Source of the DNA: an uncultured Bacteroidales bacterium
Lineage (GTDB): Bacteria > Bacteroidota > Bacteroidia > Bacteroidales > Paludibacteraceae
Assembly (NCBI GenBank): GCA_900318245.1
Contig: ONJT01000023.1
Span: 1 to 33,769 of the forward strand
Direction of reading: 5' to 3'
Length of the DNA stretch: 33,769 nt
Numbering within the stretch: position 1 is the stretch's first letter; every line of letters begins with the position of its first letter. The translations under genes and the position numbers were made by a program. Positions 5,514 through 24,495 of the stretch are shown one piece after another. A model generated the notes under the pieces. It saw only the letters and a program-made list of their open reading frames with translations, did no database searches and was not told the origin of the DNA.

Positions 5514-6794
5514 ATGAATCGTGACACAGAGATTTTTGACGTCATCCGCCGGGAGCGGGAGCGTCAGACCAAAGGTATCGAACTGATCGCCAGTGAGAAC
5601 TTCGTGAGTGACCAGGTGATGGAGGCAATGGGCAGCGTGCTGACCAACAAGTACGCCGAGGGCTATCCCGGTCACCGCTACTACGGCGGGTGCGAGGTAG
5701 TGGACATCGCGGAGGATATCGCCCGCGACCGTCTCAAACGCCTCTATGACGCCGAGTACGTGAACGTACAGCCGCACAGCGGTGCGCAAGCGAACATGGC
5801 GGTATTCATGGCGTGCCTGAAAGCCGGCGACACCTTCATGGGACTCAACCTCAGTCATGGCGGTCACCTCAGCCACGGTTCGGCCGTGAACTTCTCGGGC
5901 CTTATGTTCAACGCTATCGGCTACGACCTGGACGAAGCGACGGGTCGCGTGAACTACGACGACCTGGAGCTCAAAGCCCGCACGCATAAGCCGAAGCTGA
6001 TCATCGCCGGCGCGAGTGCGTACAGCCGCGAATGGGACTACGCCCGTATCCGCCGCGTAGCCGATGAGATAGGCGCGATATTCATGGTCGACATGGCCCA
6101 CCCCGCCGGCCTGATCGCAGCCGGTCTGCTGGACAACCCGCTGAAGTACGCGCATATCGTGACCTCGACGACCCATAAGACCCTGCGCGGTCCGCGCGGA
6201 GGTATCATCCTCATGGGCAAGGACTTCGACAATCCTTGGGGCAAGACCACGCCGAAAGGTGAGATCAAGAAGATGAGTGCGCTGCTCGACTCCGCCGTTT
6301 TCCCGGGCACGCAGGGCGGTCCGCTCGAGCACGTGATAGCCGCCAAAGCGGTGGCCTTCGGCGAAGCGCTGAGTCCGGAGTTCAAGACCTATCAGCAGCA
6401 AGTGAAGCGCAATGCCTCCGTGATGGCCCAGGCCTTCATCGACAAGGGCTATAAGGTGATCTCCGGCGGTACGGATAACCACTCGATGCTCATCGACCTG
6501 CGCACGAAATTCCCGGACCTGACGGGTAAGGTAGCGGAGCAAGCGCTCGTGAGCGCCGACATCACGACGAACAAGAACATGGTGCCGTTCGACAGCCGCT
6601 CGGCCTTCCAGACCTCCGGTCTGCGCTTCGGTACACCGGCTATCACCACCCGCGGTCTGAAAGAAGACCGGATGCCGTGGATAGTGGACCTCATCGACCG
6701 CGTGCTACTCGACCCGACCAGCGAAGCGGTCATCGCCGCGGTACGCGAAGAAGTGAACCGCGAGATGACGAAACATCCGCTGTTTGCATGGTAA
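5514..6794 (+). CDS. glyA: Serine hydroxymethyltransferase
   Basis: 426 residues, the usual bacterial length. This PLP enzyme interconverts serine plus tetrahydrofolate with glycine plus 5,10-methylenetetrahydrofolate, the main entry of one-carbon units. Visible signatures are [11 protein letters not shown] (20-30), [10 protein letters not shown] (50-59), [10 protein letters not shown] (191-200, with the PLP-contacting Asp and His) and the Schiff-base Lys222 in [15 protein letters not shown] place the start at MNRDTEIF rather than six codons upstream because family members begin there and the promoter is close. It is monocistronic: a heptad array follows the stop codon, then a bidirectional hairpin shared with the convergent AraC-type gene. 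Confidence 0.98.
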
Positions 6795-6828
6795 GGTGAA
6801 AGGTGAAAGGTGAAAGGTGAAAGGTGAA
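6794..6828 (+). repeat. Heptad array AGGTGAA x5
   Basis: Five perfect tandem copies directly after the glyA stop codon; the first copy begins with its last base. There is no C on the plus strand. Confidence 0.95.
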
Positions 6829-6834
6829 AAAAAT

Positions 6835-6865
6835 AATCCTCCGCGAGTTGCGGAGGATTTATTTT
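6835..6865. terminator. Bidirectional terminator between glyA and the AraC-type gene
   Basis: A perfect 10-bp stem (6835-6844 with 6850-6859) and a 5-base loop, with T-rich sequence to the right and A-rich sequence to the left. It serves both convergent genes. Confidence 0.85.
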
Positions 6866-7721
6866 AGCTCTTACGTTCTTTACGGAACTTATTCGGCGTG
6901 AGGCCGGTATGCTTCTTCGTATACTGGCAGAAGAAACTGGCGTTCGGGAACTCCATCTGCTCGGCGATCTTATGAATAGGCATCGTCGTTTCGCGCAGCA
7001 GGTGCTTGAGTTCGGCGATCGTCACGTCCGCAATCCATTCGCTGGCGGACTTACCGCTGCGCTCCTTGCATATCTCCGACAGGTACTTGGGCGTGATACC
7101 GATCTGCTCGGCATACCATTGTACCTCGCGTTTATGCGGGTTCTCGCGCAGCATGTTGGTGAACGTATGGAAGGTATAATCACCGGAGTTAGCCGCCAGA
7201 CGCGTCACGTTCAGATCATCCGTCGGGATCGTATTATCCAAATAATGGAGAATCTCCAAGGTTGCGCCGCGCGCCATGAGTTTCAGGATCTGGCGAAGAT
7301 AGTCATCCAACGGCTCGCTCATCTGCAAGGTCAGCAGGTGGAAATAGGTCTCGCAGAACTCTTTCGACACCTCGTTGAGTTTGAACAACGGATGGGCCTT
7401 CAGGTACTCCTGTTTCTGCCACCAGAGCGGTTCCACACGCATCAGTTCGTACATCAACTCCTCGAATAGCTTATTCGGGATAGCAAGCTCCAGGAACTCG
7501 AAGTCCTCGGAGAACTCGTACGGACCCAGTTCGGTCGCACGGGGAATACGGATGAGCAACTCATCCTGATTCACGCGCAGCATTTTGCCGTGAAAGAAAA
7601 CATCGATGTGCCCTTTCTTACAGTACACCATCGTCGTGGATGTCTCAGAAAGGGTCTCGCGGAACTGACGGAAACCTGCTACCTCATCGGTCAAGAACAG
7701 GTATTCGTTGTGCAAAATCAT
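6864..7721 (-). CDS. AraC-family transcriptional regulator
   Basis: 285 residues. The C-terminal 100 residues form the two helix-turn-helix AraC/XylS domain: an ITPKYLSEICKERSGKSASEWI segment in two parts, then IHKIAEQMEFPNASFFCQYTK and the closing GLTPNKFRK signature. The first 160 residues are the cupin-like sensing part seen in Bacteroidota regulators (MVYCKKGHIDVFFHGKM region); the ligand is unknown. Its own promoter lies at 7755-7785, back to back with that of the DUF4837 lipoprotein, so it may act on that intergenic region. Targets are not visible in the window. The gene ends at the hairpin shared with glyA. Confidence 0.93.
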   Translation of the reverse strand: MILHNEYLFLTDEVAGFRQFRETLSETSTTMVYCKKGHIDVFFHGKMLRVNQDELLIRIPRATELGPYEFSEDFEFLELAIPNKLFEELMYELMRVEPLWWQKQEYLKAHPLFKLNEVSKEFCETYFHLLTLQMSEPLDDYLRQILKLMARGATLEILHYLDNTIPTDDLNVTRLAANSGDYTFHTFTNMLRENPHKREVQWYAEQIGITPKYLSEICKERSGKSASEWIADVTIAELKHLLRETTMPIHKIAEQMEFPNASFFCQYTKKHTGLTPNKFRKERKS

Positions 7722-7754
7722 AGTACTTTACGGTATTAATTATCAATTTCGGGG

Positions 7755-7785
7755 CAAAAGTACAACAAAAATCGCATATATGCAA
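7755..7785 (-). promoter_or_regulatory. Promoter of the AraC-type gene
   Basis: Minus strand TTG (7785-7783), 20 bases, TACTTTTG (7762-7755). The upstream box is TTGCATATATGC. Confidence 0.7.
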
Positions 7786-7803
7786 ATTTTTTAGCAACTT
7801 TTT

Positions 7804-7834
7804 TTGTTTTTTTTGAGAAATATATGTAACTTTG
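7804..7834 (+). promoter_or_regulatory. Promoter of the DUF4837 lipoprotein gene
   Basis: TTG (7804-7806), 20 bases, TAACTTTG (7827-7834). The start codon is at 7856. It is divergent from the AraC-type promoter 18 bases away. Confidence 0.65.
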
Positions 7835-7855
7835 CACCCAAATTAGAACAAAGTC

Positions 7856-8872
7856 ATGAAAAAAGCTCTCTTTTATGCGTTCATCGCATTGGTATGCGTA
7901 GCGTGCGGCAAAAACGATCGTTTGCTCACTTCCGCTACGGGTTCTATCTACGAGTGTCTGGTGGTAGCTCCGTCGGGCGAAGTGTCCCATTCGGTGAGTC
8001 AGACCATGGGTGCCGACATGTATGGTCTGCCGCAGATGGAGCCGGTGTTCTCCGTTTCGAGTGTGGCTCCTTCGCAGTTCGACGACTTCTTCAAGTCCAC
8101 GCGTAACATCCTGCTCATTGATATCAACGAGCATCAATACACCCAGGTCAAGGCCCAGCAGAGCCGCGACGTATGGTCCAAGCCTCAGGCGGTGATGCGC
8201 ATCCAGGCGCCGAGTGCGGAAGCGTTTCTGGCTTATTGGACTACCCAGGGCGAAACGATCCGCGAGTGGTTCGTGCGCGAAGAGTTAGCGCGCCAGATCC
8301 GTTTCTATCGCGCGAGTACGAATAAGGAAGCGCGCGCGCACCTGAACAAGCGCGGGTATGACCTATGGGTGCCCGAGGACTTCATGCTGATCATGGATAC
8401 GACGCTGGTGCTCAACGGACAGGATATCCACGTGCTCTGGACCTGCAACAACAAAGGTCCGATGCGCAAGGACGTGCTCGTATATGACTATCCGTATACG
8501 GCGCAGGAGCAGTTCTCCGGCGAGTCGATCATCGAGATGCGCAATGAGATAGAAGGCCGGATCATCACCGCGCAAGTGCCGGGCAGCCATATGGGCACGG
8601 AGTACAAGCACTTCCCGCCGGTAAGCCGTCAGGTAGCTGCGCTGCGCGACACGACGGGTGGCTTCTACGGTATCGAGACACGGGGTCTATGGAAGATGCT
8701 GGACGGCGAAGCGATGGGCGGACCGTTCGTGAGCCTCACGCGTCTCGACCCAGTGAACGGACGCGTGGTGACCGCCGAGGCGTTCCTCTTCGCCGCCGGA
8801 CAAAAGAAACGCAATGCGTTGCGGCAGATTGAGGCCATTCTCTATACGCTCGCTATGCCGAATGAAAGATGA
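7856..8872 (+). CDS. DUF4837 family lipoprotein
   Basis: 338 residues. A type II signal peptide is clear: MKKALFYAFIALVCVACG with the lipobox cysteine at 17, so the protein should be anchored in the outer or inner membrane. The body fits the Bacteroidota family DUF4837: an early GSIYECLVV segment, a WSKPQAVMRIQAPS strand, GYDLWVPEDFMLIMD, RKDVLVYDYPY and the closing TRGLWKM/MGGPFVS part. No biochemical function is known to me. The last residues and the stop codon are encoded by a heptad repeat array, so the C-terminus was probably remade by repeat insertion. It is divergent from the AraC-type regulator. Confidence 0.85.
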   Translation: MKKALFYAFIALVCVACGKNDRLLTSATGSIYECLVVAPSGEVSHSVSQTMGADMYGLPQMEPVFSVSSVAPSQFDDFFKSTRNILLIDINEHQYTQVKAQQSRDVWSKPQAVMRIQAPSAEAFLAYWTTQGETIREWFVREELARQIRFYRASTNKEARAHLNKRGYDLWVPEDFMLIMDTTLVLNGQDIHVLWTCNNKGPMRKDVLVYDYPYTAQEQFSGESIIEMRNEIEGRIITAQVPGSHMGTEYKHFPPVSRQVAALRDTTGGFYGIETRGLWKMLDGEAMGGPFVSLTRLDPVNGRVVTAEAFLFAAGQKKRNALRQIEAILYTLAMPNER

Positions 8873-8895
8873 AAGGTGAAAGGTGAAAGGTGAAA
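8861..8895 (+). repeat. Heptad array of TGAAA type, overlapping a stop codon
   Basis: AATGAAA, GATGAAA, then GGTGAAA x3, decaying to GAATGAAA. The TGA stop of the DUF4837 gene (8870-8872) is part of the array. The unit is a rotation of the one after glyA. Confidence 0.9.
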
Positions 8896-8906
8896 GAATG
8901 AAAGAG

Positions 8907-9578
8907 TTAAAGCGTGAGGGATTTCCAGCGCTTTAGGCCGTAGAGGCAGTTCATGCACCAGAAGACATACTGCGCAGCCATGCAGTAGTCGCCGGCGCGC
9001 AGCCACAAAGCGACGCTGAGCACATCAATCGCCAACCAGATAAACCAGTGCTCGCGATAGACGAGAATCATCAGTACCTGTGCCACCAGCGCAGGTACTG
9101 TCGTATAGGCGTCCAAGTACGGCTGCGTGTCATCCGTCCAAGTCGCCAACCCCCATCCTACCAAGGCCGACGCACATATTGTCGCCCCGATAATAGAAAC
9201 CAATACCGCCGGTGTCAAAGCCCGCGGCATGACGGTCTGCGTCTCGGCCTTCATGCGGCTGCGCCACGCGAAGATGCCGTACACCATCGTACCGAAATAG
9301 TAGGCATTGATGGCGATCGTGCCGTAGAAACGCTGCGTCCAGCACAGATAGGTGAACGTCAGTACCTGACCGAAACCAAAGGCATACGTCCATATTTTGC
9401 CTTGCGCCGCGAGACATACGGAGCAGACACCGAGACAGCCTGAGATCAGGCTGATAGGGGTTAGGGGGTTAGAGGTTAGAGGGTTAGAGGTTAGAAAGTT
9501 TGTCACGCAGTAAGTGACCACTTGTACCAGCAGTCCGAAAGCGATGAAACTAATATCAAAGATTTTACTGCGCGTCAT
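8907..9578 (-). CDS. pnuC: PnuC-type nicotinamide riboside/mononucleotide transporter
   Basis: 223 residues from ATG 9578, chosen because MTRSKIFDIS is followed at once by the first membrane segment; a longer start at 9596 is possible. It is an integral membrane protein with about seven hydrophobic helices. PnuC signatures are YAFGFGQVLTFTYLCW, YFGTMVYGIFAWR and WFIWLAIDVLSVALW near the C-terminus. It takes up an NAD precursor, probably nicotinamide riboside. It overlaps the end of the Ig-like lipoprotein gene by 14 bases and is last in the pheS unit. Residues about 29-40 (the loop after helix 1) are encoded by an in-frame tandem repeat giving LTSNPLTSNP. Confidence 0.88.
   Translation of the reverse strand: MTRSKIFDISFIAFGLLVQVVTYCVTNFLTSNPLTSNPLTPISLISGCLGVCSVCLAAQGKIWTYAFGFGQVLTFTYLCWTQRFYGTIAINAYYFGTMVYGIFAWRSRMKAETQTVMPRALTPAVLVSIIGATICASALVGWGLATWTDDTQPYLDAYTTVPALVAQVLMILVYREHWFIWLAIDVLSVALWLRAGDYCMAAQYVFWCMNCLYGLKRWKSLTL
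9457..9493 (+). repeat. GGTTAGA array inside pnuC
   Basis: Alternating 7- and 8-base units, making a 15-base period that keeps the pnuC frame open on the other strand. Its right part, 32 bases ending GGTTAGAAAG, is identical to the array in the P-loop gene near 14454-14486. No C on the plus strand. Confidence 0.9.
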
Positions 9579-11268: not shown

Positions 11269-12309
11269 TTAACAACTCTCGAACTGACGAAGGAAGCGCA
11301 CATCGTTCTCCGAGAACAGACGCAGGTCCTTCACACGGTACTTGAGGTTCGTGATACGCTCGACACCCATACCGAACGCAAAACCGCTGTATTCCTTGCT
11401 GTCGATACCGCAAGCCTCCAGCACGTTCGGGTCCACCATACCGCAGCCCAGGATCTCCACCCAGCCGGTACCCTTGCAGAACGAGCAACCTACGCCGCCG
11501 CAGATATTACAACTGATGTCCATCTCGGCACTCGGCTCCGTGAACGGGAAATAACTCGGGCGCAGACGGATCTTCGTCTCCGGACCGAACATCTCCTTAC
11601 TGAAGTATAATAAGGCCTCGCGCAGATCGGCGAACGAAACATTCTTGTCGATATAGAGTCCTTCTACCTGGTGGAAGAAACAGTGCGCACGGGCCGAGAT
11701 AGCCTCATTGCGGTACACGCGACCCGGGCAGAGCACGCGGATCGGCGGCTTTTGGCTGGTCATGACGCGAGTCTGAACGGAACTCGTATGCGAGCGCAGC
11801 AGCACGTCGGTCGGTTTCTGCACGCCCACTTCTTTCTCGATGAAGAAGGTGTCCTGCATGTCACGCGCCGGGTGCTCCGGGGCGAAGTTCAGCATACCAT
11901 AGACGTGCTTGTCGTCCTCGACCTCCGGTCCTTGCGCGATGGTGAAACCGATGCGGGAGAAGATATCTTCTATCTCTTCGCGCACCAAGGACAGCGGATG
12001 ACGCGTACCGAGCGCGATAGGATCCGGCGTGCGGGTGAGGTCTAACTTATCCGCCTCCGCCGCTTTCTCTTCGAACTGCTCACGCAACTCGTTGATGCGG
12101 GCCTCCGTCTCTTGACGCAACTGGTTGAGCAACTGGCCCAACTCACGCTTCTGATCGTTCGGCACGTTACGGAACTCGTTAAACAGCGCCGTGATCTCGC
12201 CTTTCTTACTGAGGTACTTGATACGCAGCGCCTCCAACTCCTCGGCGTTATTCGCCTTCAACTCGCCCACCTGCGCAAGCAAAGATTGTATATTTTCCTT
12301 CAAAGCCAT
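11269..12309 (-). CDS. pheS: Phenylalanyl-tRNA synthetase alpha subunit
   Basis: 346 residues, the usual length. It charges tRNA-Phe together with PheT, which is not in the window. Residues 1-90 are the coiled-coil tRNA-binding arm. The class II core follows: HPLSLVREEIEDIFSRIGF, motif 2 around PGRVYRNEAISARAHCFFHQVEG, PSYFPFTEPSAEMDI and motif 3 GFAFGMGVERI. A Cys cluster CNICGGVGCSFCKGTGW is likely a zinc-binding knuckle. It is first in an operon with the Ig-like lipoprotein and pnuC. The leader between the promoter (12364-12394) and the ATG contains a heptad array. Confidence 0.97.
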   Translation of the reverse strand: MALKENIQSLLAQVGELKANNAEELEALRIKYLSKKGEITALFNEFRNVPNDQKRELGQLLNQLRQETEARINELREQFEEKAAEADKLDLTRTPDPIALGTRHPLSLVREEIEDIFSRIGFTIAQGPEVEDDKHVYGMLNFAPEHPARDMQDTFFIEKEVGVQKPTDVLLRSHTSSVQTRVMTSQKPPIRVLCPGRVYRNEAISARAHCFFHQVEGLYIDKNVSFADLREALLYFSKEMFGPETKIRLRPSYFPFTEPSAEMDISCNICGGVGCSFCKGTGWVEILGCGMVDPNVLEACGIDSKEYSGFAFGMGVERITNLKYRVKDLRLFSENDVRFLRQFESC

Positions 12310-12317: not shown

Positions 12318-12345
12318 TGATGATTGATGATTGCTAATTGATGAT
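12318..12345 (+). repeat. Heptad array TGATGAT in the pheS leader
   Basis: TGATGAT x2, TGCTAAT, TGATGAT on the plus strand. One unit has a C. It lies 8 bases upstream of the pheS start codon and so would be transcribed into the ribosome-entry region. Confidence 0.75.
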
Positions 12346-12363
12346 TTTTTACAAAAATCGCTG

Positions 12364-12435: not shown

Positions 12436-13728
12436 TTAAATCGTGACTTGCTCGAAGGTGTTGACGCGGGATTTGTCGTACGGTCGGGAGAGTTTGATGT
12501 AGTTCTCCGTGAAGCCGAACATCAGGCCTTCTTTCTTCGCGGACTCCCAGAGCACGGTAGCCGTTTCGCCCTTATGCTCCGCATAAAACGCTTCGGTCTT
12601 ACGCGCGGAGATAGCGTGCAGTTCTTTGCTCCGGCGTTCGCGTTCACGTTGCGGCACGACTTCCAGATCCATCTCGAGCATGCGCGTGTTGGCGCGCTCC
12701 GAATAAGTGAACACATGCAGTTGACTCACCGGCAGCGACTCGATGAACTCCACGTACTCGCGCCAGCACTCTGCCGTCTCGCCGCGCACACCGACCATAC
12801 AGTCCACGCCGATGAAGGCATTCGGCATGACAGATTTGATATGCGCTACGCGCTCGGCAAACAGTTCGCGGGTGTACCGGCGTCCCATAATCTTCAGCAC
12901 CGTGTTACTACCGCTCTGCAGCGGTATATGGAAGTGCGGCGCAAAATGGCGGCTGTTCGTCACGAAATCGATGATCTCATCGCTCAGCAGGTTCGGTTCG
13001 CAACTCGATATGCGGATACGATAATCCGCAATTGGTGTATGGTGTACGGTGTAAGGTGTAAGGTTGTCCAGCGCCCGCAGCAGGTCGATAAAGGTCTCGC
13101 CGGTAGAGCGGCCGAAATCGCCTATATTGACGCCGGAGAGGATGATCTCCTTCGCGCCGCCTTCGATGGCTTCCTGCGCCTGCTTGACGAGCGACGCGAT
13201 AGACGGATTGCGGCTCTTGCCGCGCGCCAGAGGGATAGTGCAATAGGAGCAGAAATAGTTGCAGCCGTCCTGCACCTTCAAAAAGCACCGCGTGCGGTCG
13301 TCTTTGCTGTAAGCAAAATGGAAGTCATCGACTTCGCGGATGGGAGAAATCGAGATATTGGAGATTGGAGATTGGAGATTGGAGATTGGAGATTCCAACC
13401 TCTCTACGAACTCGTCGAGGTGGAATTTCTCTTCCTGTCCGAGGACATAGTCCACGCCTTCGATATGCGCGATCTCGCCCGGCTGCAGTTGAGCGTAGCA
13501 GCCCGTGACGATGAGGATGGCATTGGGGTTCTGGCGCCGGATACGATGAATCATCTGGCGGTCCTTATGGTCCGCCGCGTCGGTCACCGAACAGGTGTTG
13601 ATGATGCAGATATCCGCCTGCTCGCCGCGCTGAGCCCGCGTGTGACCACGCGCAATAAGTGCCTTACCCAAGGCACTGCTCTCCGCGAAATTGAGTTTGC
13701 ACCCTAATGTGGTAAATGCGAATAACAT
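12436..13728 (-). CDS. mtaB: tRNA (N6-threonylcarbamoyladenosine37-C2)-methylthiotransferase
   Basis: 430 residues from ATG 13728; MLFAFTTLGCKLN is the family start. This radical-SAM enzyme adds a methylthio group to t6A37 of ANN-decoding tRNAs. The N-terminal domain has Cys10, Cys46 and Cys77 for the auxiliary cluster; the radical-SAM triad is Cys156, Cys160, Cys163 in CNYFCSYC. A C-terminal TRAM-like end is consistent. The start overlaps the P-loop gene by 25 bases, so they are cotranscribed downstream of dnaA. Two in-frame heptad arrays make extra loops: residues about 111-130 (SPISNLQSPISN) between the two main domains, and about 221-232 (TPYTVHHTP) in a surface loop. Copy-number change by one in either would shift the frame. 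Confidence 0.95.
   Translation of the reverse strand: MLFAFTTLGCKLNFAESSALGKALIARGHTRAQRGEQADICIINTCSVTDAADHKDRQMIHRIRRQNPNAILIVTGCYAQLQPGEIAHIEGVDYVLGQEEKFHLDEFVERLESPISNLQSPISNISISPIREVDDFHFAYSKDDRTRCFLKVQDGCNYFCSYCTIPLARGKSRNPSIASLVKQAQEAIEGGAKEIILSGVNIGDFGRSTGETFIDLLRALDNLTPYTVHHTPIADYRIRISSCEPNLLSDEIIDFVTNSRHFAPHFHIPLQSGSNTVLKIMGRRYTRELFAERVAHIKSVMPNAFIGVDCMVGVRGETAECWREYVEFIESLPVSQLHVFTYSERANTRMLEMDLEVVPQRERERRSKELHAISARKTEAFYAEHKGETATVLWESAKKEGLMFGFTENYIKLSRPYDKSRVNTFEQVTI
13039..13066 (+). repeat. Heptad array GGTGTAA-type inside mtaB
   Basis: ATGGTGT, ACGGTGT, AAGGTGT, AAGGTTG, with a further partial unit TTGGTGT to the left. It encodes a TPYTVHHTP loop on the other strand. It is nearly C-free on the plus strand (one C). 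Confidence 0.8.
13357..13391 (+). repeat. Heptad array ATTGGAG x5 inside mtaB
   Basis: Five perfect copies. They are read on the minus strand as SPISNLQSPISN. No C on the plus strand. 35 bases is not a multiple of three. Confidence 0.95.
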
Positions 13729-14570
13729 ACTTCCGCCGCGTCGGTATTCGGTAAACAATCGAGGAAATAGACGGGTGTGGACTCCAGCAGCGTGGCGATG
13801 GTCTCATAGAGTTGGTCCATCATCTGCGGCAGGATCTTCAGTCCACTCACCGACGAGAGGATATACGGATAAGCTTGCGTCGGCCGCAAGAGGCGAATGG
13901 CGTTCTCGGGCGCTTGCGCCAACTGCACAAGGGCCATCACCTGCGCTTGGTCGTTCTTATAACACGGCGTCTTACCGCTCCAGGGCGAACCGTATACGAC
14001 CACTTTTCCGTCCTCATGCACCCGCACGATAGGATTATCGTCATTCAGCCGCTCGGCATCCGCAAAGGCTTTCAGCCACTGCTCCGCATGCGTGCTCTTG
14101 CCTGTTCCAGACTTGCCGAGGAACATATAGCCCTTGCCTTCGCGAACGATCACCGCCGAGTGGAAAAGCAAGGTACTATGCCCCGCTGTAGCAAAGGCAT
14201 AAAGGAGCATGAGCGTGTTGTCAATCGCAAAACGCGTCGGCTCGCCGTAGAAAACCGCCTGCTGCATGTTCGCATCGCAGCGGAACGCACCAACCACCTC
14301 GCCGTCCCTGCTCTGCGAGAAGCGGAACAACCACTCCTCTTCGCGACGGTACATCTCGATGCGCGGCATGTCGTCGTCCGAGCGGTCCGTATAGATATTC
14401 TCCCAGCCTTCAGAAGAAGGCAAGCCTTCTTCGCTAATGCGAAGAGAGAATAAGAGGTTAGAGGTTAGAGGGTTAGAGGTTAGAAAGGGCGCGTAGTTCG
14501 GACACCACGCGAGGATGTCGCGCGTCGTGTCGATACCAAAAATATGTTCGGCTACGCGGAAATAAAGCAT
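13704..14570 (-). CDS. HprK/PEPCK-like P-loop kinase-fold protein
   Basis: 288 residues from ATG 14570, placed one base after the dnaA stop codon; a longer start at 14642 would lie within dnaA. The Walker A motif LGKSGTGKSTHAEQW (151-165) after FHSAVIVREGKGYMF, followed by LNDDNPIV and YGSPWSGK, is the arrangement of HPr-kinase/phosphoenolpyruvate-carboxykinase-like proteins of Bacteroidota. The substrate is unknown; a serine kinase role is inference. Residues 29-39 (FLTSNPLTSNL) come from a tandem repeat identical to one in pnuC, and residues about 42-52 come from two adjacent palindromes (14413-14444), so the N-terminal linker is built of repeats. It overlaps mtaB by 25 bases. Confidence 0.75.
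   Translation of the reverse strand: MLYFRVAEHIFGIDTTRDILAWCPNYAPFLTSNPLTSNLLFSLRISEEGLPSSEGWENIYTDRSDDDMPRIEMYRREEEWLFRFSQSRDGEVVGAFRCDANMQQAVFYGEPTRFAIDNTLMLLYAFATAGHSTLLFHSAVIVREGKGYMFLGKSGTGKSTHAEQWLKAFADAERLNDDNPIVRVHEDGKVVVYGSPWSGKTPCYKNDQAQVMALVQLAQAPENAIRLLRPTQAYPYILSSVSGLKILPQMMDQLYETIATLLESTPVYFLDCLPNTDAAEVCYSHLPH
14413..14444. repeat. Two overlapping short palindromes in the P-loop gene
   Basis: GAAGAAGGC-AA-GCCTTCTTC (14413-14432) and CTTCGC-TAAT-GCGAAG (14429-14444). They lie 9 bases from the heptad array that follows. Confidence 0.8.
14454..14482 (+). repeat. GAGGTTA array inside the P-loop gene
   Basis: Units GAGGTTA x2, GAGGGTTA, GAGGTTA, then GAAAG. The 32 bases up to 14487 are identical to the array in pnuC. 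No C on the plus strand. Confidence 0.9.
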
Positions 14571-14571
14571 A

Positions 14572-15936
14572 TTAATGATGCAGCGCAGACTGCAGTTGTG
14601 CGATATGCTGACGCAGTACCGGATCTTCCTCCAGCATCGCATTCACGTACGAGACAGAGTGCAGGATCGTGGCGTGCGTGCGGTGTCCCAGGCGGAAACC
14701 GATTTCGGTCAACGAACTCTGCGTGAGTTTCTTGCACAGGTAAGCCGTAACGTGACGCGCCTGACTGATCTCCTTCGAGCGGTTCGAGGAGATGATCGCT
14801 TTCTGCGAGACGTTATAGTGCTTCGAGACCTCTTCCAGCACGTCATCCACCGTTGTGCGGTGCGGATGAACGGCTACGATATGACTCACTACCTGCTCCG
14901 TCAACGCCAGGTCGATCTCTTGGTCCGTCAAGGTCGAGTGCGCCAAGAGCGAAGCTAAGATACCCTCGAGGTCACGCACCGAGTCTTGCACATTCTGCGC
15001 AATGAAATCTACGATCTCGTCACTCAGCGTGATACCGTCGCGACGCATCTTCGACAGCAAGATATCCCGGCGCAACTGGAAATCCGGACGCGAGATCTCG
15101 GCCGCCAGACCCCACTTGAAACGGGTCAACAGACGCTCCTCGATATCCTTTAACTCGATAGGAGGTCTATCAGAAGTGAGGATGAGCTGTTTGCGGCTCT
15201 GCTGCAGATAGTTGAAGATGTGGAAGAATGTATCCTGGGTTCCTTTCAAGCCGGCGAAATACTGGATGTCATCTACGATGAGTACATCCACCGACTGATA
15301 GAAATTGAGGAAATCCGGAATACGATTGTCCTTCCGCGCATCTTGGTACTGCAGCTTGAACGTGTTTGCACTCACGTAGAGCACACGTGCTTGCGGGAAG
15401 AGCGCCTGCACCTGGTGACCGATCGCACAAGCAAGATGGGTCTTACCTACTCCGCTGCCACCGTAGATGAACAGCGGGTTGAAAGCGGTATAACCCGGCT
15501 GCTTGGCGATGGCCAAACCAGCTGTGCGGGCTAACTTATTCGGTGCGCCGGCGACGAACGAGTCAAAGGTATAAAGCTCGTTTAACGAAGGCAGATCGTT
15601 ATTGCTCTGCGCCGGCTGCTGAATCGGACGTGCGTTGACGGGCGAACCGGCAGAAGGTAAGGTAGTACCCGCTCCGGAAGTGGAATCCACTAACACGCGG
15701 TATTCCAGGCGCGTGCCTTGCCCGAACACACGTATGATCGCGGCCGATAATAAGGGAATGTAGTTCTCCTCGATGTACTCCGCCACGAATTGCGATTTGA
15801 CCTGCAACACCAACGTACCCTCCGCGTAGCGTAAGGGCACAATGGGAGCGAACCAAGTCTGGTACGCAGTCGACGTCAAGTTGTCAGCCAAAATGGTCTG
15901 GCACTGAGCCCATTGTTGTTGAATCGTAGGTGTCAT
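14572..15936 (-). CDS. dnaA: Chromosomal replication initiator protein DnaA
   Basis: 454 residues. It opens the replication origin by ATP-dependent assembly on DnaA boxes. Domain I is residues 1-85, then a short linker (88-115) and the AAA+ domain: LFIYGGSGVGKTHLA (Walker A, 155-169), VLIVDDIQYF (Walker B, 218-227), LTSDRPP (sensor I) and ERLLTRFKWGL. Domain IV ends with the DNA-binding signature, here GHRTHATILHSV (417-428). The family norm is G-G-R-D-H-[ST]-T-V-L-H, so the base-contacting Asp is Thr here. The promoter is at 15956-15986. The P-loop gene and mtaB follow without gaps. The sequence upstream is AT-rich with repeated GTAAGTTGC-like words. Confidence 0.97.
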   Translation of the reverse strand: MTPTIQQQWAQCQTILADNLTSTAYQTWFAPIVPLRYAEGTLVLQVKSQFVAEYIEENYIPLLSAAIIRVFGQGTRLEYRVLVDSTSGAGTTLPSAGSPVNARPIQQPAQSNNDLPSLNELYTFDSFVAGAPNKLARTAGLAIAKQPGYTAFNPLFIYGGSGVGKTHLACAIGHQVQALFPQARVLYVSANTFKLQYQDARKDNRIPDFLNFYQSVDVLIVDDIQYFAGLKGTQDTFFHIFNYLQQSRKQLILTSDRPPIELKDIEERLLTRFKWGLAAEISRPDFQLRRDILLSKMRRDGITLSDEIVDFIAQNVQDSVRDLEGILASLLAHSTLTDQEIDLALTEQVVSHIVAVHPHRTTVDDVLEEVSKHYNVSQKAIISSNRSKEISQARHVTAYLCKKLTQSSLTEIGFRLGHRTHATILHSVSYVNAMLEEDPVLRQHIAQLQSALHH

Positions 15937-16261: not shown

Positions 16262-17176
16262 TTATTTATCTTTTTTTCCGAATATCGAGAAGTGTACATA
16301 CCGTTTCGGATGTGCCTTCAAATCGGTGAGCAAACTGTCTGCAGAAATGACAGTAGCATCGATGTGGTTATAGAGCGATTTGTTGTAGATCAGCTGTCCG
16401 ATAGTGCCTTCCTGCGAGCGCACGTCGCTCACGAGTCCGTTGACGTTCTCCACCGTCTTATCCACGCGCGCTACGGTGGCCTTCAGGTCCGCCTGCTTGA
16501 TGTCCGCGACGATGACATTGAGGTTCGCGATTGCCGTGTCGGCGTTGTTGACGATCGTCGGCACTTGGGTCTTCATCATATGCTTGAGGTTCGCCGAGAC
16601 GGACGTCAGGTCACCGGAGATACGGTCGACATTCTCCAGCGAGTGCTTGATATGCTCGCCTTCCACCTGCGTGCGTAGGGCCGCTACGAGCGAATCGACT
16701 TCCTGCACCGCCTCATCCACGTGCGCCAAGAGCTCGCCTTGCAGGCTCTCTATCAGTCCCGGCACATAAGTCGTCGGCAGGAAAGAACCTTTAGCGATTG
16801 GTGATTGGTCATTGGTGATTGGTGAATCCGGAAACTGCAGCTCTATGGCCATACCGCCGAGCATACCGTCCGCTATCAGCGCCATCTTCGTACCTTGCGG
16901 CAGAGCGATATCCTTGTGGATAGAGATATCAACGAGAAAGGCGCTGTCGCGGGTGAAGTCATAGTGCAGGCGGTCCACCTGGCCCACCTTATGACCGCGG
17001 ATATACACCGCCGCCTGTTCCTCCAAACCGTGCAGGTGGCTGAACGTACCGTGGTAGCCGTTTGTAGGCGAGAAGATGTTCACGCCCTTGAGAAAGTTAA
17101 AACCAAAAAACAAAAGGAAAAGACACACGGTGGCTAAGATGCCCACCTTTATCTCTCGTGCATACTTGATATTCAT
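16262..17176 (-). CDS. MlaD/MCE family lipid-transport protein
   Basis: 304 residues. An N-terminal membrane anchor (ILATVCLFLLFFGFNFLKG, 13-31) is followed by one MCE domain: about residues 38-115, with VYIRGHKVGQVDRL and MALIADGMLGGMAIEL. The C-terminal 180 residues are helical with repeated heptads around LENVDRISGDLTSVSANL, as in periplasmic MCE proteins that bridge the envelope and bind lipids for ABC-type transporters. The permease and ATPase are not in the window. The start overlaps the amidase stop codon as TAATG. Residues about 116-127 (SPITNDQSPIAK) are encoded by a heptad array placed just after the MCE domain. Confidence 0.9.
   Translation of the reverse strand: MNIKYAREIKVGILATVCLFLLFFGFNFLKGVNIFSPTNGYHGTFSHLHGLEEQAAVYIRGHKVGQVDRLHYDFTRDSAFLVDISIHKDIALPQGTKMALIADGMLGGMAIELQFPDSPITNDQSPIAKGSFLPTTYVPGLIESLQGELLAHVDEAVQEVDSLVAALRTQVEGEHIKHSLENVDRISGDLTSVSANLKHMMKTQVPTIVNNADTAIANLNVIVADIKQADLKATVARVDKTVENVNGLVSDVRSQEGTIGQLIYNKSLYNHIDATVISADSLLTDLKAHPKRYVHFSIFGKKDK
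16797..16824 (+). repeat. Heptad array ATTGGTG x4 inside the MCE-protein gene
   Basis: Three perfect copies and one ATTGGTC (the only C). It is read on the minus strand in the same codon phase as the mtaB array, giving SPITNDQSPI. Confidence 0.9.
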
Positions 17177-18460: not shown

Positions 18461-20731
18461 ATGCAGAAAAGTGAGTTTACACAGGCCGAAGAAGAGATGA
18501 TTCAGCGCGAGTTTGAAGCGCTGTTGGACGACTATTCGCACACGCCGCACCGCCAGAAGGTGGAGCTAATTACGCATGCGTTTAACTTTGCGCATCGCGC
18601 GCACTACGGTGTGCGTCGCCTGAGCGGCGAACCGTATATCATGCACCCCCTGGCCGTCGCGCGTATCTGCGTGAAAGAGATCGGTTTGGGAAGCACGAGT
18701 ATCTGTTCGGCGCTGCTGCACGACGTAGTGGAAGACACGGACTACAGCGTAGAGGACATCCGCGGTCTGTTCGGCGACAAGATCGCGCAGATAGTGGACG
18801 GATTGACGAAGATCAGCGGCGCTGTGTTCGGCGAGCAGGCGAGCGAGCAGGCGGAGAACTTCCGCAAGCTTCTTCTGACAATCAGCGATGACATCCGCGT
18901 GGTGCTGATCAAGATCGCCGACCGCTTGCATAACATGCGTACATTAGGAGCTCAGCCGAAAGACAAGCAATACAAGATAGCCGGCGAGACGCAGTATATC
19001 TACGCTCCTCTGGCGCACCGTCTGGGTCTGTTCCCCATCAAGACGGAGCTCGAGGACCTGAGTTTCAAATACGAGCACCCCGAGACCTGGCAGGAGATAC
19101 ACGATAAGTTAGAGACCATCAAGGAGCACCAGTTGGCAAGTTTCGAGCAGTTCGCTCAGCCTATCCGCGACCGGTTGACGAGTATGGGTTATCAATACAC
19201 GCTCAAGGCCCGCATCAAGTCCGTCTATTCGATCTGGAAGAAGATGATGAAGCAGCAGTGCGCCTTCGAGGACGTATATGACCTGCTGGCGGTTCGTATC
19301 ATCTTCACGCCGAACGAGTCAATGAGCGAGAAAGACCAGTGCTGGATGATCTACTCCGCCATCACGGAGATCTACCGTCCTCACCCGGAGCGTATCCGCG
19401 ACTGGATCTCCACGCCGAAAGCCAACGGCTACGAGGCGCTTCACGTGACGGTGATGGGCAAAGACGGCCAGTGGATAGAAGTGCAGATACGCACCGACCG
19501 GATGAACGAGATAGCGGAACGCGGATATGCCGCGCACTGGAAATACAAGACCGGCGAGTCGGACGACAGCGAACTCGACAAGTGGCTGCGCGAGATCAAA
19601 GAGATACTCGCCCACCCCGAGAAAGACTCAATGGAGTTCCTGAGCACGTTCAAACTCAACCTCTTCGCGCAGGAAGTGTTTGTCTTCACGCCGAAAGGCG
19701 AGATCAAGACCATGCCGCTCGGTTCGACCGCCCTCGACTTCGCCTTTATGCTTCACTCCGAACTGGGCGAACACTGTATCGGCGCCAAAGTGAACCATGC
19801 GCTCGTGCCGCTGTCCTACCGTCTCAAAGGCGGTGACCAGATAGAGATCCTCACCTCCAACAGCCAACATCCGCAGAAAGAATGGATGGACATGGTGACG
19901 ACCGCCAAAGCCCGCAACGGCTTGCAACAGTATTTCCACCGCGAGGAACGCCGGTATATCAAGCACGGCGAGCGGCTCGTAGAGGATGCAATCAAGATGG
20001 ATCCGGAGTTGAACGCGAACCACGACACAGCTTTGGCACGATTGTTGAGCTACTACCAGATGACGCAACCCACCGAGTTGTACGCAGAGGTAGGTCAAGG
20101 CGCTATCCGGCTGGATAACATTCACGAGATCGTCTATCCCAAGCGCGGGTGGAAATCGTATATACCCTTCCTCGGAAGGAATGATAAAACAAGCGCGGCT
20201 AAGCCGCTCAATGATACGCCTGCGGCGTCTAATGATAAAGAGCAGCCCGCGGAGAAGCCGAAGAAGAAAGTGCCGCATGCGGTGGTACTGACGGATGATG
20301 AGTTAGGGAAGAAATTTGTGCTCAGCAACTGCTGCCATCCTATCCCGGGCGATGAAGTGCTGGGATACCTGGACGAGAAAGGACTGATGCATATCCATAA
20401 GATCGACTGCCCGGAGGCGAACCTGTTGAAGACCAGTTACGGCAAGCGGATCTACTCCGCGACCTGGAACACCCACCGCGTGCAGTCCTTCGTAGAGACG
20501 ATCGAACTAAAAGGAATTGATAAGTTTGGTGTGTTCATCCACGTGCTGCAAACCATCACGACGGATTTCCACATCAACATGCGGTCCATCAATGTGTCCA
20601 GCGAAGACGGTATCTTCAAAGGCACAATGGAAATCTATGTCTATGATCGCAAAGAGTTGGACGACCTCCTGAAGGCCCTCCGCAAGATCGAAGACATCAA
20701 AGAAGTGAAACGAGTAACTGTTGAAAGTTGA
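18461..20731 (+). CDS. Bifunctional (p)ppGpp synthetase/hydrolase (Rel/SpoT type)
   Basis: 756 residues, full length. It makes and degrades the stringent-response alarmones. The HD hydrolase domain looks intact (His45, His62, His87-Asp88, Glu91-Asp92 in ALLHDVVEDT). The synthetase domain follows with RIKSVYSIWKK, RIRDWISTPKANGYEALH and WIEVQIRT; the basic R-x-R-D form is that of bifunctional Rel rather than RelA. A TGS domain (EVFVFTPKGEIKTMPLGSTALDFA) and a C-terminal ACT domain complete it. A charged linker around residues 570-605, before the zinc-finger/ACT part, is encoded by several short palindromes. The final VES and the stop codon come from a heptad array. It probably leads a long plus-strand operon. 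Confidence 0.96.
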   Translation: MQKSEFTQAEEEMIQREFEALLDDYSHTPHRQKVELITHAFNFAHRAHYGVRRLSGEPYIMHPLAVARICVKEIGLGSTSICSALLHDVVEDTDYSVEDIRGLFGDKIAQIVDGLTKISGAVFGEQASEQAENFRKLLLTISDDIRVVLIKIADRLHNMRTLGAQPKDKQYKIAGETQYIYAPLAHRLGLFPIKTELEDLSFKYEHPETWQEIHDKLETIKEHQLASFEQFAQPIRDRLTSMGYQYTLKARIKSVYSIWKKMMKQQCAFEDVYDLLAVRIIFTPNESMSEKDQCWMIYSAITEIYRPHPERIRDWISTPKANGYEALHVTVMGKDGQWIEVQIRTDRMNEIAERGYAAHWKYKTGESDDSELDKWLREIKEILAHPEKDSMEFLSTFKLNLFAQEVFVFTPKGEIKTMPLGSTALDFAFMLHSELGEHCIGAKVNHALVPLSYRLKGGDQIEILTSNSQHPQKEWMDMVTTAKARNGLQQYFHREERRYIKHGERLVEDAIKMDPELNANHDTALARLLSYYQMTQPTELYAEVGQGAIRLDNIHEIVYPKRGWKSYIPFLGRNDKTSAAKPLNDTPAASNDKEQPAEKPKKKVPHAVVLTDDELGKKFVLSNCCHPIPGDEVLGYLDEKGLMHIHKIDCPEANLLKTSYGKRIYSATWNTHRVQSFVETIELKGIDKFGVFIHVLQTITTDFHINMRSINVSSEDGIFKGTMEIYVYDRKELDDLLKALRKIEDIKEVKRVTVES
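20166..20228. repeat. Three short palindromes in the rel linker
   Basis: CCTTCC-TC-GGAAGG (20166-20179), GCGGC-TAA-GCCGC (20195-20207) and ACGCC-TGC-GGCGT (20216-20228). They are interspersed with AATGATA words (20180, 20209, 20231). Confidence 0.75.
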
Positions 20732-20763
20732 AAGGTGAAAGTTGAAAGAGTGAAAGTTTAAAG
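20721..20763 (+). repeat. Heptad array TTGAAAG at the rel 3' end
   Basis: TTGAAAG x2, GTGAAAG, TTGAAAG, AGTGAAAG, TTTAAAG. The TGA stop of rel (20729-20731) is part of it. No C on the plus strand. It is a relative of the arrays after glyA and the DUF4837 gene. Confidence 0.9.
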
Positions 20764-20788
20764 TTTTTAAAGTTAAATATATGAAAAT

Positions 20789-21868: not shown

Positions 21869-22956
21869 TAGACCATCCGGAAAATAGTGCTGAGTACAAA
21901 GGACTGACGGTAAACGCAGGCGTAGAGAACCTGCCGTCCGTCAACCCGTACGCGACCTTCCGACGCAAGAAGACCGTGCTGAGTCCCGAAGAATACTTCG
22001 AGGGCATCCGTCGTGGCGACATGACGGTACTCAGTCAGGCGGTGACGCTCGTAGAGAGCAACCTGCTGGCGGATCAGGAGGTGGCGCAGAAAGTGATTGA
22101 GCTCTGCCTACCCTACGCCGGCAACTCCATCCGGGTCGGAATCACGGGTGTGCCCGGCGCCGGCAAGTCCACCTTCATCGAAGCCCTGGGAAGCGAGCTG
22201 TGCGACGCAGGAAAGAAACTCGCCGTGCTGGCTATCGACCCTTCGTCCGAACGCAGCAAAGGCTCTATCCTCGGCGATAAGACGCGTATGAACGAACTGT
22301 CCGTCAAGTCGAACGCCTTCATCCGCCCCAGCCCGAGTGCAGGTTCGCTCGGCGGCGTGGCACGCAAGACGCGCGAGACGATCGTGCTCTGCGAAGCAGC
22401 GGGTTTCGACACCATCCTTCTGGAGACCGTCGGTGTGGGTCAGTCGGAAACGGCGGCGCACTCGATGGTGGACTATTTCCTGCTGCTCCAAGTGACGGGT
22501 ACCGGCGACGAACTGCAAGGTATCAAGCGCGGTATCATGGAGATGGCGGACGGCATCGCGATCAATAAATGCGACGGTAATAATATAGAACGTGCGCGCG
22601 CCGCGCGTGTGAGCTTCAAGAACGCCTTGATGCTCTTCCCGCCCCCCGCATCCGGCTGGACACCGGACGCTATATGCTGCTCGTCCATCGACCACAGCGG
22701 CGTGATGGAGGTATGGAAGAACATCGAAGACTATATCGCCTTCACCAAGCAGAACGGCTTCTTCGACGCCCACCGCACCGAGCAGGCCAAATACTGGATG
22801 TACGAGACCATCAACCAGGCCCTGTTGGACGGATTCTATAAGAACGAGAAGATGGAGCACCAGATCGAAGTAGCAGAACGCCAGGTGCTCAATAACGAGA
22901 TAAGCAGTTTTATCGCTGCACATAATTTATTAACTGCTTATGGCAGGAACAAGTAA
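21865..22956 (+). CDS. meaB: Methylmalonyl-CoA mutase-associated GTPase MeaB
   Basis: 363 residues. This G3E-family GTPase protects and loads the B12-dependent methylmalonyl-CoA mutase, used for propionate/succinate metabolism in Bacteroidales. The P-loop GVPGAGKST (95-103), the DPSSERSKGSILGDKTRM segment, ETVGVGQSE and NKCDG are all visible. It overlaps the DUF1573 stop codon by 4 bases and the dnaB start by 17 bases. The mutase genes are not in the window. Confidence 0.95.
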   Translation: MIDHPENSAEYKGLTVNAGVENLPSVNPYATFRRKKTVLSPEEYFEGIRRGDMTVLSQAVTLVESNLLADQEVAQKVIELCLPYAGNSIRVGITGVPGAGKSTFIEALGSELCDAGKKLAVLAIDPSSERSKGSILGDKTRMNELSVKSNAFIRPSPSAGSLGGVARKTRETIVLCEAAGFDTILLETVGVGQSETAAHSMVDYFLLLQVTGTGDELQGIKRGIMEMADGIAINKCDGNNIERARAARVSFKNALMLFPPPASGWTPDAICCSSIDHSGVMEVWKNIEDYIAFTKQNGFFDAHRTEQAKYWMYETINQALLDGFYKNEKMEHQIEVAERQVLNNEISSFIAAHNLLTAYGRNK

Positions 22957-24460
22957 AAATAGCAAACGTACCCCGCAGACGACAATCATCAAGGTCGGCG
23001 CGAATGAGTTGGGCAAGTTACCCCCTCAGGCACCCGAACTCGAGGATTCGGTGCTTGGTGCGCTGATGATAGAGAAAGATGCGTACGGCACGGTAGCAGA
23101 CCTGCTGCGTCCGGAGGTGTTCTATAAAGACCAGAACCGTATGATCTTTGAAGCTATCCGTGAGTTGGCCGCCAAAGACCAACCTATCGACGCGCTGTCG
23201 GTAGGCGAGAAACTGCGCAGTCTCGGCACGCTGGAGAAAGCCGGCGGCGTGGTCTATATAGCCGAGCTGACGCGCCGCGTCGCTTCGACGGCACACCTTC
23301 GTTACCACGCGCAGGTGATTGCACAGAAAGCTACCGCCCGCGACCTCATCGCCATGGCGGCGCAGATAGAGGAGAAGGGCTTCGACGAGACGCAAGACGT
23401 AGAGGAGTTGATGCAGGAAGCGGAAGCCGGGATCTTCGAGATCAGCCAACGCAGCCAGAAACGCGACGTGACGCAGATAGACCCCGTCATCGAGGAAGCT
23501 TTCGCGCGCATGGAGAAAGCCTCTAAGAACGACGGTTCGATATCCGGTATTCCGTCGGGCTTCCATGCCCTGGATAAGATCACCTCAGGTTGGCAGACAC
23601 CGGACCTGATCATCATCGCGGCCCGTCCGGCGATGGGTAAGACCGCCTTCGTGCTCTCGATGGCAAAGAATATGGCAGTGGACCGTAATATCCCCGTAGC
23701 CATCTTCTCGCTCGAGATGAGTAATGTCCAACTCGTCAACCGTCTGATCATGAACGTGTGCGAGTTGGAGGGCGATAAGATCAAGACCGGTAAGATGACC
23801 AAAGAGGATGCACGGCGACTGAACACGAAGATCAACATCATGAAGGGCAAACCGCTCTACTTGGACGACACCCCTTCGCTCTCGATCTTCGAGCTGCGCT
23901 CCAAAGCCCGCAAACTGGTGCGCGAGCACGGCGTGAAGATGATCATCATCGACTACCTGCAACTGATGAACGCCCAGGGTTCGTCCTTCGGCAGCCGTGA
24001 GCAAGAGGTAAGTATTATCTCGCGAAGCCTCAAGGCCCTCGCCAAAGAGTTGGACATCCCCATCATCGCGCTCTCGCAGCTCAACCGTGGTGTCGAGGCG
24101 CGTCAAGGCGTAGAAGGCAAGACGCCGCAGCTGGCAGACCTTCGTGAGTCGGGTGCTATCGAGCAAGACGCCGACCTCGTATGTTTCATCCACCGTCCGG
24201 AGTATTACCACCTCTACAACGACGACAAGACGGGTAAGGACCTTCGCGGCCTGGCACAGATCATCGTCGCCAAGCACCGTAACGGTGCCACCGATAGTAT
24301 ATGGCTTCGGTTCCGCGGCAAATACGCGAAGTTCCAGAACGAGGACGAGGCCATCGATGCCGACGAGATGAACAGCGGCGCGACCTTAGAACCGGAGACG
24401 GTTTCTATTCAGTCGAGCATGAACAGTTTAGGAGAAGATATCAGTCAATTTATGCTGTAA
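22940..24460 (+). CDS. dnaB: Replicative DNA helicase DnaB
   Basis: 506 residues. It is the hexameric 5'-3' helicase at the fork. The N-terminal domain starts at PPQAPELEDSVLGALMIEKDA. The RecA-like domain has the Walker A ARPAMGKTAF (about 231-240), the FSLEMSNVQLVNR motif, the Walker B IIIDYLQLM and the arginine-finger/LADLRESGAIEQDAD region. No intein is present. It starts inside meaB (17-base overlap). A heptad array separates it from asnS. Confidence 0.97.
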   Translation: MAGTSKNSKRTPQTTIIKVGANELGKLPPQAPELEDSVLGALMIEKDAYGTVADLLRPEVFYKDQNRMIFEAIRELAAKDQPIDALSVGEKLRSLGTLEKAGGVVYIAELTRRVASTAHLRYHAQVIAQKATARDLIAMAAQIEEKGFDETQDVEELMQEAEAGIFEISQRSQKRDVTQIDPVIEEAFARMEKASKNDGSISGIPSGFHALDKITSGWQTPDLIIIAARPAMGKTAFVLSMAKNMAVDRNIPVAIFSLEMSNVQLVNRLIMNVCELEGDKIKTGKMTKEDARRLNTKINIMKGKPLYLDDTPSLSIFELRSKARKLVREHGVKMIIIDYLQLMNAQGSSFGSREQEVSIISRSLKALAKELDIPIIALSQLNRGVEARQGVEGKTPQLADLRESGAIEQDADLVCFIHRPEYYHLYNDDKTGKDLRGLAQIIVAKHRNGATDSIWLRFRGKYAKFQNEDEAIDADEMNSGATLEPETVSIQSSMNSLGEDISQFML

Positions 24461-24467
24461 ATTGACA

Positions 24468-24495
24468 TTTTAGATTTGAGATTTAAGATTTTAGA
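24468..24495 (+). repeat. Heptad array TTTTAGA between dnaB and asnS
   Basis: TTTTAGA, TTTGAGA, TTTAAGA, TTTTAGA. It ends 4 bases before the asnS ATG. No C on the plus strand. Confidence 0.85.

What the first reader, a model, noticed from the sequence alone, without database searches (positions are those of the whole stretch)
6794..24495. Ten heptanucleotide tandem arrays of differing sequence across 18 kb
Arrays of 4-6 heptads lie at 6794, 8861, 9457, 12318, 13039, 13357, 14454, 16797, 20721 and 24468. Units include AGGTGAA, GGTTAGA, TGATGAT, GGTGTAA, ATTGGAG, ATTGGTG, TTGAAAG and TTTTAGA. The unit length is constant while the sequence varies, which points to one process (for example slippage at a fixed step, or a dedicated repeat-adding element) rather than copies of one mobile sequence. 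Heptanucleotide STRR repeats are known in some cyanobacteria; I know no description for Bacteroidales.
Basis: partly seen in the sequence, partly recalled or inferred. Interest (0 to 1): 0.85.

Follow-up and report, generated by a model that had tools for sequence, protein, structure and literature searches.

The report
Short tandem arrays that overwrite each other
This bacterium's genome is sprinkled with small tandem arrays, mostly of 7 bases, at gene ends and inside genes, and between close relatives they are gained, lost or replaced by other arrays, which looks like short patches of array DNA being copied from place to place.

Summary
In detail: ten period-7 arrays lie where stated, far above chance, each with at most one C on the + strand. 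Period 7 peaks in a 785-kb sample of the genome (87 of 267 arrays, 0 of 23 in a Markov control). Periods 8, 9 and 11 also occur, and two of eleven species sampled are mainly period 11.

Against G071, the closest held relative by PnuC (96% identical over 26.7 kb), six arrays keep place and unit, two are absent, two are replaced by arrays of another unit between unchanged flanks. G071 has one more array, which overwrites part of pheS. Exact empty sites exist. Local slippage alone cannot make the swaps. Arrays share irregular blocks of 20 or more bases, more often within than between genomes.

Best reading: existing arrays serve as templates for short-patch ectopic replacement, slippage homogenises them, and selection keeps those that do not break genes. 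No RVT_1 reverse transcriptase was found in this genome, 92% complete. Heptamer arrays are known in bacteria; my searches listed nothing on unit swapping or species-specific period.

The parts
6793..6829 (+). (AAGGTGA)5.3 array starting at the stop codon of glyA, just before a terminator-like hairpin
   Evidence: G071 has about 13 units of GGTGTAC/AGTGTAA-type here, G132 an exact empty site
8862..8925 (+). (ATGAAAG/GTGAAAG) array at the stop codon of ORF 7856-8872 (DUF4837), part of a 56-base insert
   Evidence: absent in G071 and G132; the left flank ATGAAAG resembles the unit
9455..9495 (+). (GGTTAGA/GGGTTAGA) array inside pnuC, read as LTSNPLTSNPLT on the - strand
   Evidence: other species of the genus carry other arrays at this place; one search names the family (NMN_transporter)
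12318..12346 (+). (TGATGAT) array just upstream of pheS
   Evidence: identical in G071
13034..13064 (+). (GGTGTAA) array inside the mtaB-like gene (TPYTVHHTP)
   Evidence: 21 bases (3 units) longer in G071; shorter without a heptad array in most relatives
13357..13394 (+). (ATTGGAG)5.4 array inside the mtaB-like gene (SPISNLQSPISN)
   Evidence: G018, G003 and G015 have other 7-base units at the same place, G004 has none
14453..14484 (+). (AGAGGTT) array inside ORF 13704-14642, sharing 32 bases with the pnuC array
   Evidence: G071 has an AGATTGA-type array here; G003 has non-repetitive coding sequence
16796..16825 (+). (GATTGGT) array inside the MlaD-domain gene 16262-17176
   Evidence: same unit in G071, 3 bases longer
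20720..20765 (+). (GTTGAAA) array at the stop codon of the RelA/SpoT gene
   Evidence: absent in G071 and G132, present in G152
24462..24500 (+). (ATTTTAG/TTGAGAT) array filling the gap from the dnaB-like ORF to the asnS-like ORF
   Evidence: identical in G071
12040..12090 (+). site in pheS without an array here; in G071 about 31 bases are replaced by an ATTTACC/ATTTGGTC array
   Evidence: G000 and G132 keep FEEKAAEADK, G071 reads LNDQMVNDQMVNH

Best explanation
The arrays form a pool of short tandem repeats that copies itself. A stretch of an existing array, tens of bases, is used as a template (or as a short single strand) and is written into another place where a few bases match, overwriting or adding roughly 20 to 100 bases. 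Unequal slippage then adds, removes and homogenises units. Because new arrays come from old ones, period and unit are inherited by the pool, drift between species, and replace each other at sites that tolerate change: after stop codons and in variable parts of proteins. Shown: gains or losses, unit swaps, overwriting of coding sequence, whole-unit length change, sharing of irregular blocks. Inferred: that the copying is by microhomology-primed short-patch replacement (as in short-patch double illegitimate recombination or replication template switching), its direction, and that selection on reading frames filters the result.
For: Period-7 excess in 785 kb. G000 against G071, 96.4% identical over 26,698 aligned bases: of ten arrays 2 identical, 4 with the same unit but changed, 2 with the unit swapped (glyA, ORF 13704), 2 absent (8862, relA), plus one array in pheS only in G071 that replaces coding sequence kept in G000 and G132. 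The 300 bases on either side of the two swapped arrays are 98-99% identical, so no long divergent tract was imported there. Irregular shared blocks: 32 bases between window 9467 and 14456, whose 29-base core occurs in 3 of 178 genus genomes; 26 bases between the G071 glyA array and C18:6126 of G000; a 23-mer from the G071 pheS array at 76 places in 45 of 178 genomes, reversed control 0; besides pheS I read four distinct loci of it, with flanks unrelated by eye. Array pairs on different pieces or more than 10 kb apart share irregular blocks of 20 bases or more in 43 of 27,989 pairs within genomes and 34 of 118,730 between genomes. Dominant period differs by species: G011 and G013 together 21 of period 11 and 3 of period 7; eight other relatives 19 and 145. 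mtaB +21 bases = 3 units. At the array sites inside genes the net length changes are multiples of 3 (21, 9, 9, 3).
Against: No event was seen with donor and target before and after; donor and direction are inferred from shared sequence. Microhomology is visible at the 8862 site (ATGAAAG) but was not tested statistically. The block-sharing excess beats Markov nulls of order 4, and of order 5 at 26 bases or more (0 of 60 replicates), but not order 6 (5 of 60) or 7 (57 of 60), which largely memorise the arrays. Own-genome enrichment of pnuC-loop units is weak: two of seven loops (G060, G089) share no 12-mer with their own small genome sample, and the units of the G000 loop are commoner per 100 kb in the samples of G006, G014 and G089 than in G000. 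Blocks are also shared between species, so import from outside is possible. The relA array is shared with G152 but not with the closer G071, and the 300 bases downstream of it are only 92.3% identical to G071, so allele exchange is possible there.
Confidence: 0.55

Rival explanations
1. Plain replication slippage: each array grows from a chance local seed, then units drift by mutation and homogenisation; variable loops and gene ends are only the places where this is tolerated.
For: Whole-unit length change at mtaB (+21); seed-like ATGAAAG beside the 8862 insert; many different units in one genome; block sharing is matched by order-6 and order-7 Markov nulls; tolerance explains the sites.
Against: Unit swaps between unchanged flanks at about 4% divergence, replacement of unique coding sequence in pheS and apparently in ORF 13704, irregular blocks shared by distant loci, species with period 11 instead of 7.
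Confidence: 0.2
2. A dedicated repeat-adding enzyme (telomerase-like reverse transcriptase or other templated polymerase) writes units from an RNA or DNA template, whose change alters the species vocabulary and period.
For: Species-specific period and units; strand asymmetry, 73 of 86 period-7 units lack C or lack G against 32% of random genomic heptads; one 23-mer in 45 of 178 genomes; the two samples with the highest array density, G015 and G018 (the latter only 16 kb), do have an RVT_1 gene.
Against: No RVT_1 match in G000 (91.9% complete), nor in G014 and G006, which also carry many arrays; 5 of 19 genomes have one, and G008 with three had no array of 2.8 copies or more in 20 kb. The 33 different period-7 units in the G000 table would need many templates.
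Confidence: 0.08
3. Alleles with different arrays move between species by homologous recombination of the unique flanks (allele exchange); the arrays themselves do nothing.
For: relA array shared with G152 but not with the closer G071, with a 92.3% identical stretch next to it; blocks shared between species.
Against: Flanks of the two swapped arrays are 98-99% identical within 300 bases on each side; does not create arrays or explain the same block at unrelated loci.
Confidence: 0.12
4. The arrays are kept for a function, for example stop-codon insulation, translational coupling or protein-binding sites near gene ends.
For: 27 of 35 gap arrays lie within 20 bases of a stop codon; in tandem gaps the G-rich strand is sense in 22 of 26; a role in translation was proposed for TAACTGA in Beggiatoaceae (PMC4679880, abstract and section 10 read).
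Against: Arrays differ, come and go between relatives at the same genes; gaps are short, so closeness to stops is partly forced and was not tested against random placement; units change freely.
Confidence: 0.05

Closest known systems
Short tandemly repeated repetitive (STRR) heptanucleotides of cyanobacteria (name recalled; three heptanucleotides of Calothrix are cited in PMC4692102, passage seen)
   Same: Several different 7-base units in tandem in one genome
   Different: Here many arrays are inside coding sequences, and unit swap at orthologous sites and species with period 11 are seen; whether cyanobacteria show this was not tested
TAACTGA direct repeats of Beggiatoaceae, Cyanobacteria and Bacteroidota (PMC4679880; abstract and section 10 read)
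   Same: 7-base units, mostly intergenic, patchy distribution, relatives lacking the arrays, indels in 7-base steps between two Cyanothece strains, other heptamers mixed in
   Different: That study follows one unit, often near start codons; here many units, mostly at gene ends and inside genes, and units replaced at fixed sites
G-rich heptamer repeats of Xanthomonas and Nostoc (PMC4692102; abstract and passages read)
   Same: Over-represented period-7 arrays, strand-asymmetric
   Different: None of the consensus units here holds GGG (two of the ten window arrays hold GGG at 8-base units), so G-quadruplexes are not the common factor
Short-patch double illegitimate recombination in Acinetobacter (recalled; paper not held under the DOI I tried)
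   Same: Short intragenomic segments replace local sequence at microhomologies
   Different: Not known to me to spread tandem arrays; not shown here experimentally
Phase-variable heptanucleotide tracts such as hmw of Haemophilus influenzae (search listing only)
   Same: 7-base units that change in copy number
   Different: Not tied to a few surface genes; units themselves are replaced

Membership tests
Bacterial heptameric simple sequence repeats / STRR | Tandem copies of 7-base units over-represented in the genome | tested here: met
   87 of 267 arrays in 785 kb, 0 of 23 in the control
Bacterial heptameric simple sequence repeats / STRR | Mainly intergenic | tested here: inconclusive
   35 of 77 in gaps that are about 9% of sequence; the other 42 overlap called ORFs, some of which may be false
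TAACTGA repeats | Unit TAACTGA | tested here: not met
   TAACTGA, in any rotation or strand, is not among the 33 consensus units of period 7 in 785 kb
G-quadruplex heptamers | Runs of three or more G in each unit | tested here: not met
   None of the 33 consensus units of the own table holds GGG
Reverse-transcriptase repeat-adding element | RVT_1 gene in the genome | tested here: not met
   0 matches in G000; 5 of 19 genomes of the genus positive; 3 of 14 control genomes ring
Short-patch double illegitimate recombination (definition recalled) | Local sequence replaced by a short segment without long flanking homology | tested here: met
   pheS in G071; ORF 13704, where G003 and others have non-repetitive sequence of similar length
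Short-patch double illegitimate recombination (definition recalled) | Segment of ectopic intragenomic origin | tested here: inconclusive
   Shared irregular blocks within the genome, but also between species
Short-patch double illegitimate recombination (definition recalled) | Microhomology at both joints and dependence on single-stranded DNA | not testable with these tools
   Needs recent events and mutants

The most novel reading that the evidence does not exclude
A machine-less form of mobile DNA: a genus-wide pool of tandem arrays that propagates by templating its own copies, so that period (7 in most species sampled, 11 in others) and unit sequence are inherited traits of the pool and arrays compete to overwrite each other at fixed sites, including variable stretches of essential proteins, making protein sequence there interchangeable.
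Probability: 0.3. Interest if true: 0.8.

Novelty: new variant of a known kind. Interest (0 to 1): 0.62.

Why it matters
Heptamer arrays are known to be over-represented in many bacterial genomes, and the papers I read offer no mechanism for their origin (PMC4679880 abstract: 'no mechanism is evident'). Here a genus with 178 held genomes shows presence, absence and swap at orthologous sites, and species whose arrays have another period. That makes the origin question testable: donors can be sought, rates measured, and a mutational process that overwrites short stretches of genes with low-complexity peptide becomes visible. It also warns annotators that peptides such as SPISNLQSPISN and LTSNPLTSNPLT can be recent DNA patches.

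Tried and rejected
Replication-strand orientation: all ten window arrays are C-poor on +, but on C38 and C21 both orientations occur within a few kb, so a pure leading-strand rule is rejected; gene orientation in tandem gaps correlates better. Reverse transcriptase: rejected for this genome only. Selection for units open on one strand and closed on the other: 61 of 86 against 53.7 expected from base composition alone, so mostly a consequence of lacking C or G. Species-specific concerted evolution of the pnuC loop: only weak. Synteny with 15 relatives in stretches of 20 kb or less: only mtaB with ORF 13704 stays together, in 7 of 15, and dnaA, MlaD-domain and amidase genes in G004, so orthologous arrays had to be sought gene by gene. 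Markov nulls of order 6-7 not exceeded. The short-patch recombination, 2007 simple-repeat and 2008 cyanobacterial papers are not held under the DOIs that I recalled; searches gave no text on short-patch recombination. One search ignored the strand of some loci and was redone; one search failed on a script error and was redone.
Full report
What is there. Ten arrays of 7-base units lie in the window at the stated places; 5 long exact period-7 runs are seen where 0.1 are expected. The window is all of contig 36 of a 2.26 Mb genome of 56 contigs, 91.9% complete. In 785 kb of this genome period 7 is the largest class (87 of 267), with smaller classes at 8, 9, 11, 12 and 15. Units are strand-asymmetric: 73 of 86 period-7 units lack C or lack G, against 32% of random heptads.

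Where they sit. In the window four arrays begin at or next to a stop codon (glyA, the DUF4837 gene, the RelA/SpoT gene, the dnaB-like ORF), five are in frame inside genes (pnuC, mtaB twice, ORF 13704, the MlaD-domain gene), one is upstream of pheS. Over the contigs examined 35 of 77 period-7 arrays are in gaps between called ORFs, which are about 9% of the sequence; 27 of the 35 lie within 20 bases of a stop codon, and in tandem gaps the G-rich strand is sense in 22 of 26. ORFs were called by length only. A G-free strand cannot hold TGA or TAG, so it mostly reads through, while the C-free strand usually stops in all frames; this fits tolerance rather than design, because base composition alone predicts nearly the same (61 of 86 against 53.7).

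Relatives. Of 178 genus genomes (ours included) 44 matched PnuC at 1e-90, and 30 loci were returned. My pattern parsed the loop in 22 of the 30. By eye eight of these have clear arrays with seven different units at the same place (G000 and G071 share one): ACCAATT, CTCTCAA, CCTTTCA, CATCATA, AACTATC and CCTCCAG among them; others have 8-base-like, irregular or no repeats. In mtaB the first variable stretch has different arrays in G000, G018, G003 and G015 and none in G004; 14 of 16 sequences were parsed. After glyA, 3 of 16 genomes have arrays, all different. No structure was predicted; 'loop' is inferred from length variation.

Short time scale. G071 is 96.4% identical over 26,698 aligned bases. 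Six of the ten arrays are in place with the same unit (12318 and 24462 identical; 9455, 13034, 13357 and 16796 changed), two have another unit between unchanged flanks (6793 and 14453), two are absent (8862 and 20720). G132 has an exact empty site at 6793 and lacks the 8862 insert. In pheS, G071 alone of the three has an array in place of about 31 bases of coding sequence. Nine gaps of 9 bases or more are in that alignment: six at these eleven sites (the pheS site was added after it was seen), one a 33-base coding repeat at 26235, one an 11-base change at 31410, one the end of homology at 32174. The gaps at 20721 and 20771 belong to one place. At relA the array is shared with G152, not with G071 or G132, and the next 300 bases are 92.3% identical to G071 against 96.4% overall, so allele exchange may have acted there.

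Copying. The arrays at 9467 and 14456 share 32 bases including an odd 8-base unit; the 29-base core occurs in 3 of 178 genus genomes, at two places only in ours. G071 keeps the pnuC copy with one substitution but has another array at the second site, so the second copy is probably younger. The pheS array of G071 holds a 23-mer found at 76 places in 45 of 178 genomes, none for the reversed control; besides pheS I read five of these places, of which G000 C20 and G071 C37 are the same locus, which leaves four distinct loci with unrelated flanks. Pairs of arrays share irregular blocks of at least 20 bases about five times more often within than between genomes (43 of 27,989 against 34 of 118,730; without the two period-11 species 37 of 27,482 against 34 of 95,796). 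Markov controls of order 4, and of order 5 at 26 bases, are exceeded; order 6 and 7 are not.

Species-specific period. Counting arrays of at least 2.8 copies, G013 has 7 of period 11 and none of period 7 in 93 kb; G011 has 14 and 3 in 140 kb (plus 10 of period 8). Eight other relatives have 19 and 145. Samples are 48 to 140 kb per relative; ten further relatives were sampled with 14 to 20 kb only and are not in this count.

Mechanism. I favour ectopic short-patch replacement templated by existing arrays, followed by slippage. It explains swaps with intact flanks, overwriting, shared irregular blocks and inheritance of period, and needs no reverse transcriptase: none was found in this genome, in G006 or in G014, though the array-densest samples, G015 and G018, do have one. 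Joints were not tested for microhomology beyond inspection, and imports from other cells cannot be told from copying within the genome. Assembly error is unlikely because most arrays are shorter than a usual read and reading frames stay open across them (inference; reads were not available).

Known or not. Over-representation of heptamers in bacterial genomes, their presence in Bacteroidota, relatives without the arrays and 7-base indels are in print (PMC4692102 abstract and passages; PMC4679880 abstract and section 10). My searches of one open-access library listed no title or abstract on unit swapping or species-specific period; I judged by the listings, and that library lacks most subscription journals.

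Noticed in passing
window 26228-26350: 33-base coding repeat (AEQPKEEAPVV) in the large ORF 25940-29611 (outer-membrane-receptor-like by eye); G071 has 66 bases, two units, more.
   Followed up: partly
window 492-615: 43-base unit repeated 2.9 times near the contig start, overlapping ORFs on the - strand.
   Followed up: no
L074 (C22) 6551-6646; C38 153484-153589; C21 151018-151116; C10 11394-11478: Two arrays facing each other, (AAAGGTG)n then a short spacer then a (TTTCAATTTTCA)-type array, at four loci, two of them sharing 35 irregular bases; perhaps a hairpin-like composite.
   Followed up: partly
L250 (G002 relA 3' end) and L284 (G083 pnuC loop): A palindromic element of the type CCCTTCCCTGCAGGGAGGGGGTGGGGGT, or a variant of it, sits at the same sites that hold arrays in other species.
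   Followed up: no
own genome, many places: Separate families of period 9 (TATTCGGAG) and 11 (TTGACTGTCGG, CCTTTGAGCAC) with their own vocabularies.
   Followed up: partly
window 31410: An 11-base difference (TAAATAGGGGT more in G071), one period-11 unit long.
   Followed up: no
window 32174-33769: Homology to G071 ends at 32173, before a tyrosine-recombinase-like ORF 32311-33546 (named by eye, not searched).
   Followed up: no
genus-wide: Gene order around mtaB is poorly kept among species with about 80% identical MtaB, within the 20 kb fetched.
   Followed up: no
G552 and G403 (same class, one genus): The reversed control AGGTTAG x4 had 55 and 2 matches in these two genomes, another array-bearing lineage.
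   Followed up: no
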